A stretch of DNA of 64,000 nt, from the NCBI RefSeq assembly GCF_000002995.4, contig NW_025062477.1, positions 10,822,649-10,886,648 of the forward strand, given 5' to 3'. Every line of letters starts with the position of its first letter. Positions within the stretch are counted from its first letter, which is position 1. Source of the DNA: Brugia malayi (taxonomy: Eukaryota > Nematoda > Chromadorea > Rhabditida > Onchocercidae). Both the position numbers and the translations under genes were made by a program. Positions 19,426 to 56,746 of the stretch are shown piece by piece. Under the pieces are notes generated by a model that saw nothing but the letters and a program-made list of their open reading frames with translations, had not been told where the DNA came from and ran no database searches.

Positions 19426-21470
19426 CAAGTTAGTTAACAATCGGTAAAAATTTTTTTCTTCCTTCAAGGTTCGACCAGCAGAAATTGTCGTTTGGTGTAG
19501 CATTAATGTCAAATTATTGATAAAAGCAATTTTTAAGTAATTATCATTTGCTAATCTTTGATGTTAAAAATATTTTTGATATATTCTTTGCATAACTTTG
19601 CTCAGTTTTCTTATAAATAACTTTTTTTTTCCTTTTGTATAATTTGTCCCAAATTGTTTACAATTTCTGTTGCACAATAATACCAATATTTGTGGTGTAC
19701 TGTAGTTTTTCGTTGTTTGACTGATTAGGGTATTCATTTCAATTTTGAATTTCTGCAGTGATGTAAATATATTTTTAGTAATCAACAATTGTTAAAAAAT
19801 TCTTTTTTAAAAATTTTATATATTCATGTAGCGATTTTTAAACTAACTTATTTCAGAAATGGGAAATGTTGAACATTTTTGGAAATTCAAAAATAAGAGA
19901 TGCAAAAATTTAGGATAACCAGATTTGGTTTTTCATGCATGAGCTTGGCTAAGGGAATTTTTGAAATATAATTTATTGTCAAATATAATTTTGCTTATAC
20001 TTCTTTTTTCGTTTCTTTCAAATTAAAATTCCCTAATGGAATTGTTAATTGAAGAATGGATCAAATCAGTTTTTGTATTATTCATCGTTAGAAGCAAATT
20101 TTATGATTAGAAAATTTTTGTGATGATTTATGGTCTCTAAATGTATAAAAAATATTGTTAATTAGTTACTTTTGTTTTGCAGGAAATAGGAAACAGTCAG
20201 ATCTCAAATTAAGTGATAAGAAATTTTTGGGTTAAATAATACCTTATCAATTACAGACAGAAGTGTCAACAGGAATTGTTTTCCAACCAAAAATCAACAG
20301 AAGTTGGCAACTTCAAAGGACTTTTTGGGCTTTGCATATTGCAAAATGAGACATTATCTTCTATCACCGCTAAAAGCTTTTCTATTCCTTTCATTTTTAC
20401 AAATTTCCATCTTAAGCTGTAGCAGTCTAATTTATCAGTATGTTTTTTTTTTTTTCTTTTTTTTTTTCTTAAATTATTATTTTAACAAATTATTAAAATC
20501 TGAATTGTTAATATTAAAATTAAAAATAGCTTTTTGTATTCAATTTGCTACACTAAAATTTTCATTGAAAAATTTTTTCTGGTCAGCTTCAGCCATTTAA
20601 TACTTGGTTTGATAAATTTCACAGTTTGCAATCTTCTAGTGACATTTATTTTGCAGGCAATTCAAAGCATTAAGTCACTCAAAGTTACGTGCATTGTATT
20701 CGAAACATTATGATGATTATGTGAAATTTGTAACAGAATACAGTAAGTAATTAAAAATTTCATTAGCGGTTTTCTTAATATTTCTTATTTTTATTCGACT
20801 GGTTTAATTTACTTCACTCATCTCATTTGTAATTTTCAGAATCGTTAATCCGAAGCATTATCACTTTAATTAAAATATGAATTGAATAAGTTGAATCGAC
20901 TGCAGATAGTTTTCCTGACCGCTTAAATGATATTATATATTTAAATTTATTAATTATCGTGCAAATTTCACGCATTAATTTTTATTATAATTTGATTAAT
21001 TATATTTGAAATGGCTACGTGTCAGCTGCCAAACAGCGCTTTACGTAATTTCCAGCAAAACCACGCATTATTTTAGATTTATCCAAAAAATTCAAAACTT
21101 ATTTCCAATTTCCGCTTTCGTTGTAGAACAAGGAGTTAAGGATAATCGACCGGAACCACATCGCTTGTTGGCTTATGCTAAAAATGTGGAAGAAATTCAA
21201 AAGCATAATGAGTTGTATAAACAAGGCAAATCATCGTTTATGCTTGGCTTAACTGTAATGAGTGATATGGTAAGATGAAAATTTCCATTCCTTAAAATAT
21301 GAAAAAAGAATTTTAATTACAAGTGGTATAAATTATGGTAAATAACATTAAGAAAAGTAATTGCAGTAGATTAATGAATTAATTACAGGCAGAGGAAGAT
21401 ATGCAGGACGAATTTCCGGTGATCAAATTTAATGATACGGATGATAGCCATATTCCGCAAAATTTAACTC
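18410..21470 (+). repeat. Direct duplication D, copy 1 (5' halves of protease 2 and pseudoprotease 3)
   Basis: The segment from exon 4 of protease 2, through the 920-bp shared promoter, to exon 4 of pseudoprotease 3 recurs at about 51403-54473 with an offset of 32993-33003. The only differences seen are a 9-bp T-rich insertion in intron 2 and one homopolymer change. Identity ends inside exon 4 at both sides. Confidence 0.9.
19426..20345. promoter_or_regulatory. Shared 920-bp divergent promoter region, copy 1
   Basis: This region lies between the start codons of protease 2 (-) and pseudoprotease 3 (+). The corresponding region at 52428-53347 has exactly the same length and appears identical by eye. 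It contains no convincing exon. A single region likely drives both genes outward; the core elements cannot be pinned down from sequence alone. Confidence 0.6.
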
Positions 21471-22106
21471 ATTTAGTGAAAGCTGTTAATTGGGTAACTA
21501 ATAAATATGTCACCGCAGTTAGAAATCTCAAAATCGATCGGGTCGGGTAATTTATTCTTTCTGTGGCTTTTTCTTATTAATTCATTATACTTACAGTGAA
21601 AATTGCAAGTTGAAAAAAAATTTGTTTTTAATACTTGATTTTTAATGTAATTTAAAAGAAAGATTTTTCTTTTATTGCTTTTAATGTCAAAAAAAAAAAA
21701 AAAAAATACAGTAAAGATTTCAGAGAATGATAGAGGGAGAGAGGTAGAAGGAGGAAAAAAGAAAAAGAAGAAAATAAAAAATTGAAATATTGTCAAAAAT
21801 CAATTTAAAAAATTAAGAAATAAAAATTCGTTGAGAAAACTAATTTTACCAATAATTTTGATATTTTTCAAATTTTTATTTTATTATTATTGAAAATCGC
21901 GTTCGAATTAAAGCGGTTTTGCCCTGGTGCTAGTTCAGCTAGTGCAGTAGCAGATGTCGTAGAAGCGCTAGCTAAATCACAAACCAAAAAATTGCGCAAA
22001 CTTTCCATTCAAGAATTATTGGACTGTAGCGGTTCCGGATGCCGATCATATGGAGATTTTGACAAGGTGGTATACTGCTTTAGAATGCTAATAACTAAAT
22101 ATACAT

Positions 22107-54473: not shown

Positions 54474-56746
54474 ATGAAAAATTGAAAGCTGTTAATTGGG
54501 TAACTAAAAAATATGTCACCGCAGTTAGAAATCTCAAAACCAATCGGGTCAGTCTTTTGTTGAATAATCTTTTATACCTGATAGGAATTTAGTAGTTTAA
54601 AAAAAAAAAAAAAAAAAAAAAATGAAAAAAGAAATCAGCAATGATAAAATTATGCTTACAAAAAAGTGTTCTTTATCCAATAAAAGAAGAATGGCAAATG
54701 AGCATTTGAAAATCTTTTTCTACTATTCTTTCTAAAAAAATTTGGGAGAATTTAATTTGACATATGTAAGTAAATTATGGAATATATTATCTTATGAGAA
54801 GCAAAAAATGCGCGCTTTTTTCTTTATCTTCTCTTTTATTTTTTTTCAAATAATTCAGATCGTGTAGAAATTTGTTCTAAATAAAACAATAATTTTGCTA
54901 ATATTCAAATTCTCATTCGTTTATTAATGAAATATTACTTTAAGGGATGTGGTGAAGCTGCTGCCGATGCATTTGTAGGTGTTTTTGAAGCATTAGCTAA
55001 ATCACAAACCAAGAAATTGCGCAAGCTTTCGGTTCAGGAATTAGTCGATTGCAGTGGTCCATGTTCGTTGTTTGGAAGATTCGGAAATGTAATACAGCTT
55101 TTAGACTCACATAATCAGATAGATATAATAAAATCTATCGAAATGAAATGAATTATCTCTGTTCATTTCTGGAGGAAATAAACAGAAAACCGATTAATAC
55201 ATATGAATAATAATTAGTAATTTAATAATAGCAACAACATTGACAATAATGATAATAAAAATATTAGTAATAGTAATAGTAACAATAAACAATAGAGTAG
55301 TATTAAATTTAAGCTGTATGAAATTTTAACAGTGACACAACGCTAATTTTTATTATTTCTTTGCAAAATTATTTCCATATGTATAAAATGATAGCATTTT
55401 ATTTTCATTAAATCAAATTGTTTGGTGATGATCATAAGCAATGAAAACGTTTTATGATAACATTATTATTAATGATAATAAATGATGATAAAATTAATAG
55501 TAATACTAATAATAACAAAGGCTAATTCAAATTATGCAAATATACTATTTCTTTAATATAATTTAAAAGCATAATTCTTCAGTTTTCCGCATATGTTATG
55601 AAAAAGAATGGATTAGTAAGCGAAAAGAGCTATCCATATGGAAAAAAGCATGGGTCATGTGAAATGAAAAGTGCACGATTTGGAAAACCTGTTGCCACCT
55701 TTACAGTAAGCCGTGTTACACCTTTATTATTTAAAGCACTTCTGGCAAAAGGACCGGTGGTTACAAGAATTTTATTGTCAACTAAATTCAGAAATTATAA
55801 AGAAGGTAAGAAAATTTGTTTAATTAAATTTAAAATTTGAAAGAGACGAATGAACAAAAATTGTAAAAAGACGAAAAGTTGAATAAATAAGGTAAAGAAA
55901 AATGATTAAATTTGTAATAATTTAATGCAAATTAAAGAATAATAAAATTTAAGAAGTTTATCTATTATTTTATTATTTAATTAATTTATACCATTTTCAA
56001 CTAAAATTACAAATTTTAGGCATCAATTAGATGTGAATAATTTGCAGGAATATTTAGTGATCAATGCGACGAAGGTTTTTATTCACATACGGTATTAGCG
56101 GTTGGATTTACAAATAATTATATTTTAATTAAAAACAGGCAAAAATTTTCTCTTATTTAAATTTTTTGACTGAATTTTGAACAATTTATTGTGCTATTTT
56201 ATTTTATTTAAATTAGAAGCTTAAAACATATTTTGCTTTTTTGTCGTCTTTCTATTTCTATTTATTTAAAACCTATGGTAAATTGAAATTGTTAGCCAAG
56301 ATAATGCGTTCACTTTGCATTCTCAATTTTTTAATTAATGAAATATTTACAACAATGAAAAAATTGATAGCAATTTTATATTAACATCATTATTTTAAAT
56401 GAATAAATCATTTATAATGTTATTAATTTCTTCTTCCTTTAAATCAAAGAAATTGTTTATAAAATTGATAAGTTATACATCATTTTGATAGTATTATATA
56501 GACTTGCGGCAAAAAGAAAGAAAAGGAAAGCTAATTGCGTTATATATGTTGGATAGTTCATTTTTAAAATATACTACAATCTTTTTTTTTTTTTTTAAAT
56601 CAATGAAAAAATTAAACTAATGAATAAATTGATAATAATTAATTTTCAGTTGGGGCACCGATTGGGGCGAAAAAGGATATATGCGTATTTCGATAAATCC
56701 AAAAGAAAATTGTAATTTATATCTTGAATCACTTGCTGCAATGTGA
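53348..56746 (+). CDS. Papain-like pseudoprotease 5 (catalytic Cys to Ala), 343 aa
   Basis: Eight exons: 53348-53439, 53660-53745, 54130-54272, 54392-54547, 54945-55088, 55583-55805, 56048-56138, 56650-56746 (1032 nt). Exons 1-3, most of exon 4 and exon 8 match pseudoprotease 3; exons 5-7 are clearly different in sequence yet keep frame. At the active site, [12 protein letters not shown] aligns with GRCGACFIFSALG so that the catalytic Cys is Ala164, and the oxyanion Gln is replaced. His295 ([10 protein letters not shown]) and Asn311 (KNSWGTDWG) are kept. As in pseudoprotease 3, the intron 7 donor is GC (AACAG|GCAAAA). The two copies have diverged without stops or frameshifts while both lack the nucleophile, which argues for a retained non-catalytic role. 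AATAAA lies at about 56867. Confidence 0.8.

What the first reader, a model, noticed from the sequence alone, without database searches (positions are those of the whole stretch)
20346..56746. Two divergent papain-like pseudoproteases with catalytic Cys replaced by Ala
Seen: genes at 20346-23689 and 53348-56746 share all exon phases with the neighbouring active proteases but have Ala164 in place of the nucleophile (PGASSAS and GEAAADA) and have lost the oxyanion Gln, while His, Asn, the structural Cys and the signal peptide remain. The two copies differ strongly in exons 5-7 yet stay open. Known: dead papain-family members exist with Ser or other replacements. Inference: these are secreted non-catalytic decoys, binding proteins or inhibitor sinks acting with the active paralogues.
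Basis: partly seen in the sequence, partly recalled or inferred. Interest (0 to 1): 0.75.

Follow-up and report, generated by a model that had tools for sequence, protein, structure and literature searches.

The report
Conserved dead cathepsins in filarial worms
A human-infecting worm carries protease look-alikes that have lost their cutting residue, have been kept by selection across related worms, and sit back to back with a working protease gene, which suggests that they regulate it rather than cut anything.

Summary
The window is Brugia malayi. Two intact 8-exon genes (345, 343 aa) encode procathepsin-L-type proteins (signal-like start, I29 pro-domain, papain domain) with Ala164 at the nucleophile place and no oxyanion Gln; His and Asn remain. 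[quoted passage not shown] The rest I did not find in the papers searched. Both belong to one well-supported clade seen in 10 filarial and thelaziid species, none with the nucleophile (13 of 13 sequences covering it). dN/dS between them in exons 5-7 is 0.35, like active neighbours. Each lies head to head, 920 bp apart, with an active group-Ic-like cathepsin; dead and active homologues also share a contig length in Litomosoides, Thelazia and Acanthocheilonema. The I29 domain stays conserved while the dead papain domain drifts faster than the active one in the best-covered species (not separable with Elaeophora or Thelazia). Best mechanism (inferred, about 45%): a pseudozymogen regulating its active partner through I29. 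Decoy or inhibitor-sink roles remain possible (about 35%). Exons 1-3 of the two dead genes are identical through a recent conversion or duplication tract that spans the shared intergenic region.

The parts
20346..23689 (+). dead cathepsin gene 1 (8 exons, 345 aa; identical to P0002)
   Evidence: splicing; Pfam I29 + Peptidase_C1; identical database protein
21929..21931 (+). codon of Ala164 in gene 1, at the nucleophile place (C161-P-G-A164)
53348..56746 (+). dead cathepsin gene 2 (8 exons, 343 aa; Q75PZ6 with one residue different)
54957..54959 (+). codon of Ala164 in gene 2 (C161-G-E-A164)
19426..20345 (.). 920-bp intergenic region shared by active gene B (-) and dead gene 1 (+), head to head
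52428..53347 (.). 920-bp intergenic region shared by active gene C (-) and dead gene 2 (+), head to head
17029..19425 (-). active group-Ic-like cathepsin B (catalytic Cys, Gln, His, Asn present; = Q8IU32)
50036..52427 (-). active cathepsin C, partner of dead gene 2
12557..15032 (-). active cathepsin A (database name BMA-CPL-7), without a dead partner next to it
35056..36138 (+). 5'-truncated copy of active cathepsin C (exons 5-8 only)
18511..21380 (.). 99-100% identical tract shared with the copy 33 kb downstream, from intron 3 of active gene B through the intergenic region to intron 3 of dead gene 1; outside it 53-76% on the dead side up to about 23440 and a 60-98% mosaic on the active side (150-base steps)
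49422..49518 (-). orphan copy of dead exon 8 downstream of active gene C, inside an inverted duplicate

Best explanation
These are selected pseudo-zymogens, very probably secreted: a clade of procathepsin L relatives that lost the nucleophile and oxyanion Gln before the filarial-thelaziid split and has been kept since. In B. malayi each dead gene is divergently paired with an active group-Ic-like cathepsin across a short shared intergenic region. Most likely working (inferred): both partners are made together; the dead protein cannot mature itself and carries a constrained I29 domain, which binds the mature active partner (or its close paralogues) as an inhibitor, chaperone or stabiliser, while the dead papain domain serves as a scaffold for I29 and is freer to drift. 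Shown: intact frames, clade, loss of catalytic residues, purifying selection, pairing in B. malayi, predicted zymogen fold, I29/mature constraint contrast in the close filariae. Inferred: co-expression, secretion, binding of the partner.
Against: No binding, inhibition or co-expression data. I29 is also well conserved in the active clade, and papain zymogens need it to fold (recalled), so its conservation alone does not show a trans role; the dead/active I29 rate ratio 0.66 has a range of 0.32-1.30. Two of six species sets (with Elaeophora or Thelazia) do not separate from 1: 1.14 (0.5-2.7), 1.38 (0.6-3.2). Orientation of the pairs outside B. malayi is unknown, and the C. johnstoni homologues lie on different short contigs. 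Active gene A has no dead partner beside it.
Confidence: 0.45

Rival explanations
1. Secreted ligand-binding pseudoprotease: the dead papain domain binds a host or vector partner (cystatin sink, substrate shield, immune ligand), as proposed by the first reader; I29 only helps it fold.
For: Signal-like N-terminus, cysteines for three disulfides, His/Asn and fold kept; faster drift of the papain domain would fit host-facing surfaces. Precedent: scabies-mite SMIPP-Cs promote coagulation in host skin (PMC7815109, abstract).
Against: Mean dN/dS is below 1, with no sign of diversifying selection at gene level, though exon 7 alone gives 0.77; substrate-cleft residues (Gln, second Gly) are not kept. 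SMIPP-Cs lack a predicted pro-peptide (PMC5956821, passages), here it is kept. An ES proteome reported no cathepsins (PMC2659452, passages); another paper lists a papain-family protein Bm1_18805 among gut and ES proteins (PMC4569401, passages), and I could not tell which gene that is.
Confidence: 0.35
2. Intracellular or embryonic role in the group-Ic and Wolbachia context: the dead protein buffers group-Ic proteases that feed the symbiont.
For: Group-Ic Bm-CPL-3 and -6 knock-down lowers Wolbachia DNA (PMC6107106, passage); the dead transcript is reported up 14 d after tetracycline (PMC2754610, passage).
Against: The dead gene is also kept in Acanthocheilonema viteae, Loa loa, Setaria digitata and Thelazia, which are Wolbachia-free (recalled), so Wolbachia cannot be the only reason.
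Confidence: 0.1
3. Decaying pseudogenes recently copied by segmental duplication.
For: Local duplication is rampant: truncated active copy, orphan exon 8, inverted copies.
Against: Open frames although introns 4 and 5 are saturated, dN/dS 0.35, simulation, homologues in 10 species, independent deposited sequence in which the GC-AG intron is removed.
Confidence: 0.04
4. Not dead: a changed catalysis with Ser (copy 1 has Ser165-Ser166 next to Ala164).
For: His and Asn are kept; copy 1 and W. bancrofti P0142, counted from the helix, place a Ser there.
Against: Copy 2 has GEAAADA with no Ser; the place is A, S, T, G or P across the clade by either count, and Gln is not kept.
Confidence: 0.03

Closest known systems
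[quoted passage not shown]
   Same: It is dead gene 2 (one residue different). That BAD11761 and Q75PZ6 are one record is inferred from the shared name.
   Different: The database name does not cover the clade, the pairing or the constraint pattern. One paper mention found (PMC2754610).
Scabies-mite SMIPP-C inactive cysteine proteases
   Same: Parasite papain-family pseudoproteases forming their own clade beside active paralogues.
   Different: SMIPP-Cs have Cys to Ser and His to Gln or Leu and no predicted pro-peptide (PMC5956821, passages); here Cys and Gln are lost, His and Asn kept, and I29 is kept and constrained.
Free-standing I29 inhibitors (CTLA-2alpha, crammer, BCPI)
   Same: An I29 domain that is not the zymogen part of its own active enzyme.
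   Different: Those are propeptide-like inhibitors (PMC4089206, abstract); here I29 is still attached to a folded dead papain domain. Trans inhibition is untested.
Filarial group-Ic cathepsins L (Bm-CPL-7 and relatives)
   Same: Same gene structure, neighbouring genes, same zymogen architecture.
   Different: Catalytic Cys and Gln present; separate clade. That genes B and C are group Ic is inferred from likeness to gene A (BMA-CPL-7).
TINAG-type papain homologues (Cys to Ser)
   Same: Animal papain-fold pseudoproteases; one SSWA-type locus is in this genome (C137:2552813; the TINAG name is recalled).
   Different: Elsewhere in the genome and not in the cathepsin L cluster; its own family place was not tested.

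Membership tests
Papain family (Pfam Peptidase_C1) with I29 pro-domain | Sequence profile match over pro- and mature domain | tested here: met
   I29 34.3-34.7 bits (cut-off 24.4), Peptidase_C1 127.8-130.1 bits (cut-off 20.7) for both
Papain family (Pfam Peptidase_C1) with I29 pro-domain | Zymogen fold | tested here: met
Active C1A cysteine peptidase | Nucleophile Cys and oxyanion Gln | tested here: not met
   Cys: 0 of 13 dead-clade sequences. Gln at -3: 0 of 13, of which 3 models (P0003, P0006, P0010) have a missing or odd exon end there and say little. Active clade: 12 of 12 have both
Active C1A cysteine peptidase | Catalytic His and Asn | tested here: met
   SHTV in 7 of 13, KNSW in 6 of 13; the other gene models stop, skip or are garbled before these sites
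C1A non-peptidase homologue (pseudoprotease) | Family fold, catalytic residue replaced, gene maintained | tested here: met
C1A non-peptidase homologue (pseudoprotease) | No proteolytic activity of the protein | not testable with these tools
   needs assay
SMIPP-C type | No pro-peptide, catalytic His replaced | tested here: not met
   I29 present, His present (comparison from PMC5956821 passages)
I29 trans-inhibitor (works-like) | Binds and inhibits another cathepsin | not testable with these tools
   only constraint and pairing data
Filarial cpl group Ic | Falls inside the active group-Ic clade | tested here: not met
   Separate clades, both 100/100; bootstrap rough, as it had not settled

The most novel reading that the evidence does not exclude
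An ancient divergent 'protease plus dead-protease' gene pair in spirurid nematodes: one shared regulatory region makes an active group-Ic cathepsin and a catalytically dead pseudo-zymogen whose I29 domain is its dedicated regulator in trans; recombination centred on the shared intergenic region keeps the signal and pro-domains of the copies matched while the papain domains diversify.
Probability: 0.3. Interest if true: 0.72.

Novelty: new variant of a known kind. Interest (0 to 1): 0.5.

Why it matters
Papain-family pseudoproteases of parasites have been studied as host-facing proteins (SMIPP-C, PMC7815109 abstract). Here the conserved piece is the pro-domain and the gene sits beside an active partner, which offers a direct test of whether a dead zymogen can be kept as a regulator of a live one. 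Group-Ic cathepsins are reported to matter for Wolbachia load and microfilarial development in B. malayi (PMC6107106, passage); I found nothing on how they are regulated in the papers seen.

Tried and rejected
Rejected: pseudogene; assembly error as the source of the Ala (deposited P0001, which differs from this assembly by one residue, carries it too); Ser catalysis; Wolbachia as sole reason. A broken-looking copy on a small contig (C105, L029) is 97.7% like gene 2 with 47 gap openings and 7 mismatches, in the manner of unpolished long reads; I did not take it as a broken allele.

Papers: the searches listed no paper whose title or abstract start describes this clade; most listed papers were not opened, and searches listed only part of what matched (20 of 22, 20 of 89, 25 of 74, 12 of 161). 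'filarial' + 'cathepsin L' + 'pseudoprotease' gave 0 papers; the accession names gave 2, of which PMC11701575 was seen in the listing only. Only open-licence PMC papers are held; Guiliano et al. 2004, the family paper, is not held and may mention these genes. PMC3009605 was searched for group names without result.

No Onchocerca or Dirofilaria name appeared among the rows shown by the three protein searches (in one search only 120 of 203 rows were shown), but I did not test whether those proteomes are in the database and many rows have no name, so absence is not claimed. Orientation of the pairs in other species could not be read (no DNA). The structure was predicted for gene 1 only; no complex could be modelled; no signal-peptide predictor was at hand.
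Full report
What is there. The window lies at C137:10822649-10886648 of an 86.8-Mb genome. The database protein identical to gene 1 (P0002) comes from a B. malayi contig of 13,951,302 bases, the length of C137, so the genome is Brugia malayi. Gene 1 (20346-23689) and gene 2 (53348-56746) splice to 1038 and 1032 bases without an inner stop; every intron is GT-AG except intron 7, GC-AG in both. The GC intron is absent from the independent record Q75PZ6 (P0001, one residue different from our gene 2; whether it is a cDNA I did not see), and the B. 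timori model P0003 ends by reading into it. Both proteins match Pfam I29 and Peptidase_C1 above the curated cut-offs. The N-terminus looks like a signal peptide; no predictor was run.

Catalytic residues. Both have Ala164 three residues after structural Cys161, and Arg as last residue of exon 4 where the active neighbours have Gln. Of 15 dead-clade proteins found (P0001-P0010, P0138-P0142), 13 cover the nucleophile site (10 species: B. malayi 2, B. timori, W. bancrofti 2, Loa loa, A. viteae 2, L. sigmodontis, C. johnstoni, E. elaphi, S. digitata, T. callipaeda); P0139 and P0141 end before it. All 13 have one Cys only in the stretch, the structural one. None has Gln at -3 (W. bancrofti P0142 has one at -2); three of these models (P0003, P0006, P0010) have a missing or odd exon 4 end, so 10 are informative for Gln. 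His (SHTV) is seen in 7 of 13 and KNSW in 6 of 13; the others are models that stop, skip or are garbled before these sites. All 12 active-clade sequences examined have Gln and Cys; 7 of the 12 models show the His motif and 11 the Asn motif, the rest being models that skip that exon part (see the splice site under noticed). At the 16 other papain-family loci taken from the list, 12 show the Cys, one shows Ser (SSWA type), and in 3 the nucleophile exon was not in what I fetched.

History. A tree of 12 dead, 10 active and 8 outgroup sequences (left out: P0003, P0139, P0141 of the dead; P0121, P0123, P0124, P0125, P0132 of the active; the garbled tail of the Setaria model was cut off) puts all dead sequences on one side of a branch (100/100) and all active ones on one side of another (100/100); the bootstrap had not settled (correlation 0.986) and the root is a midpoint. 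Thelazia stands outside the other dead sequences as drawn (94/87), so the nucleophile was probably lost before filariae and Thelazia split. The dead clade is not nested in the active one.

Selection. Between genes 1 and 2, exons 5-7 give dS 0.99, dN 0.35, ratio 0.35 (bootstrap 0.20-0.58, 1000 draws); three active pairs give 0.36-0.42 over exons 5-6. By exon: 0.22, 0.35 and 0.77 (exon 7, small, dS only 0.32). Introns 4 and 5 are 52-55% alike against 50-51% for shuffled controls; introns 6 and 7 are less far apart (61% and 75% against 50% and 54%; part of intron 7 lies in the 3' identical stretch); exons 5, 6 and 7 are 67%, 61% and 78% alike. In a neutral simulation at 0.5 changes per site, 0 to 0.1% of 2000 runs stayed open; 0.15-1.1% at 0.25; 4.6-10.8% at 0.1.

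Which part is constrained. Over B. malayi, A. viteae and L. sigmodontis the mean difference is 0.157 (I29) and 0.458 (mature) in the dead clade, 0.224 and 0.326 in the active clade; ratio of ratios 2.44 (1.20-5.41); the dead mature domain changes 1.62 times as fast (1.21-2.19), the dead I29 0.66 times (0.32-1.30, not distinct from 1). One search tried six species sets: the set, three overlapping ones that also lie above 1 (2.34, 3.16, 2.72; the last two use only the exon 4-5 part of the mature domain), and two two-species sets, with Elaeophora (1.14, 0.5-2.7) and Thelazia (1.38, 0.6-3.2), that do not separate from 1. Over all 21 species pairs I29 identity is 75% dead and 71% active, mature 51% dead and 61% active (pairs are not independent). 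So I29 is the better conserved part in both clades; what changes in the dead clade is mainly the mature domain.

Locus. Active B starts at 19425 (-) and dead 1 at 20346 (+); active C at 52427 (-) and dead 2 at 53348 (+): two head-to-head pairs, each 920 bp apart. A third, near-identical pair follows outside the window (L031, 99.7% over 7.4 kb). In L. sigmodontis both homologues lie on contigs of length 33872, in T. callipaeda 16892, in A. viteae 14.36 Mb; equal length is taken as the same contig (inference); orientation there is unknown. C. johnstoni homologues lie on different short contigs (35341; 12155 and 6756). The two B. malayi pairs are 99-100% identical from about 18511 to 21380, a stretch whose middle falls in the shared intergenic region; beyond it identity is 53-76% on the dead side up to about 23440, where a second 99.7% stretch begins, and a 60-98% mosaic on the active side. 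This can be read as conversion spreading from the intergenic region, or as a recent duplication whose middle parts were exchanged; I cannot tell which. Dead paralogue pairs have pro-parts far more alike than mature parts: B. malayi 98% and 65%, A. viteae 99% and 51% (79 mature residues), W. bancrofti 96% and 59-81% (short pieces of 79 and 21 residues; that P0139 and P0142 are one gene is assumed); active pairs B/A 90% and 74%, B/C 88% and 80%. Such exchange explains identity between copies, not conservation between species. Around it are large direct and inverted duplicates of 98.3-99.9%, and orphan copies of exon 8. Whether all near-identical copies are real or partly an assembly matter cannot be told here.

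Expression and function in print. [quoted passage not shown] PMC6107106 (passage) places Bm-CPL-2, -3, -6, -7, -8 in group Ic and reports that knock-down of -3 and -6 lowers Wolbachia DNA; gene A is named BMA-CPL-7. PMC2659452 (passages) found no cathepsins in ES products, which speaks mildly against abundant secretion; PMC4569401 (passages) lists a papain-family protein Bm1_18805 among gut and ES proteins, gene not identified here.

Judgement. Dead by sequence, maintained, paired in B. malayi: shown or strongly supported. Regulator through I29: inferred, about 45%. Host-ligand binder: about 35%. Already named as non-peptidase homolog; the clade, pairing and constraint contrast were not found in the searches made.

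Noticed in passing
window 13118 (-), 17459 (-), 35662 (+), 50512 (-); L030:8861 (-): Active genes have a non-AG 3' splice site before the exon with the catalytic His (TTTTCCG|GTATTT in four copies, TTTTCG|GTATTT in gene B). Deposited proteins Q8IU32 and Q6E7B5 read straight across it (GIYNDP), while gene models of B. malayi C and A, Loa, A. viteae and W. bancrofti skip the stretch, four of these five losing the His; the Elaeophora model also lacks it. A GT-CG intron, perhaps shared by several filariae and perhaps a splicing switch of activity, would be worth RNA-seq.
   Followed up: partly
window 23178 and 56139 (start of intron 7 in the dead genes): Intron 7 of both dead genes has a GC donor; the B. 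timori model runs into it.
   Followed up: partly
window 13369-13455 (-): Q6E7B5 (gene A) lacks the first part of exon 6, as if an inner AG was used as acceptor: an alternative form.
   Followed up: no
window 18284-64000: Large direct and inverted duplicates at 98.3-99.9% identity with alternating orientation; true recent duplication or assembly matter not settled.
   Followed up: no
window 31238-31594 (+): Weak, below-cut-off match to class II tRNA synthetase (20.0 bits, cut-off 25) in the duplicated stretch.
   Followed up: no
window 8821-9495 (-): 224-aa ORF with a weak, below-cut-off major-sperm-protein match (19.8 bits, cut-off 25.9).
   Followed up: no
G000:C137:2552813-2553010 (-), L033: Another papain-type locus with Ser in place of the nucleophile (SSWAQ), TINAG-like by recall.
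   Followed up: no
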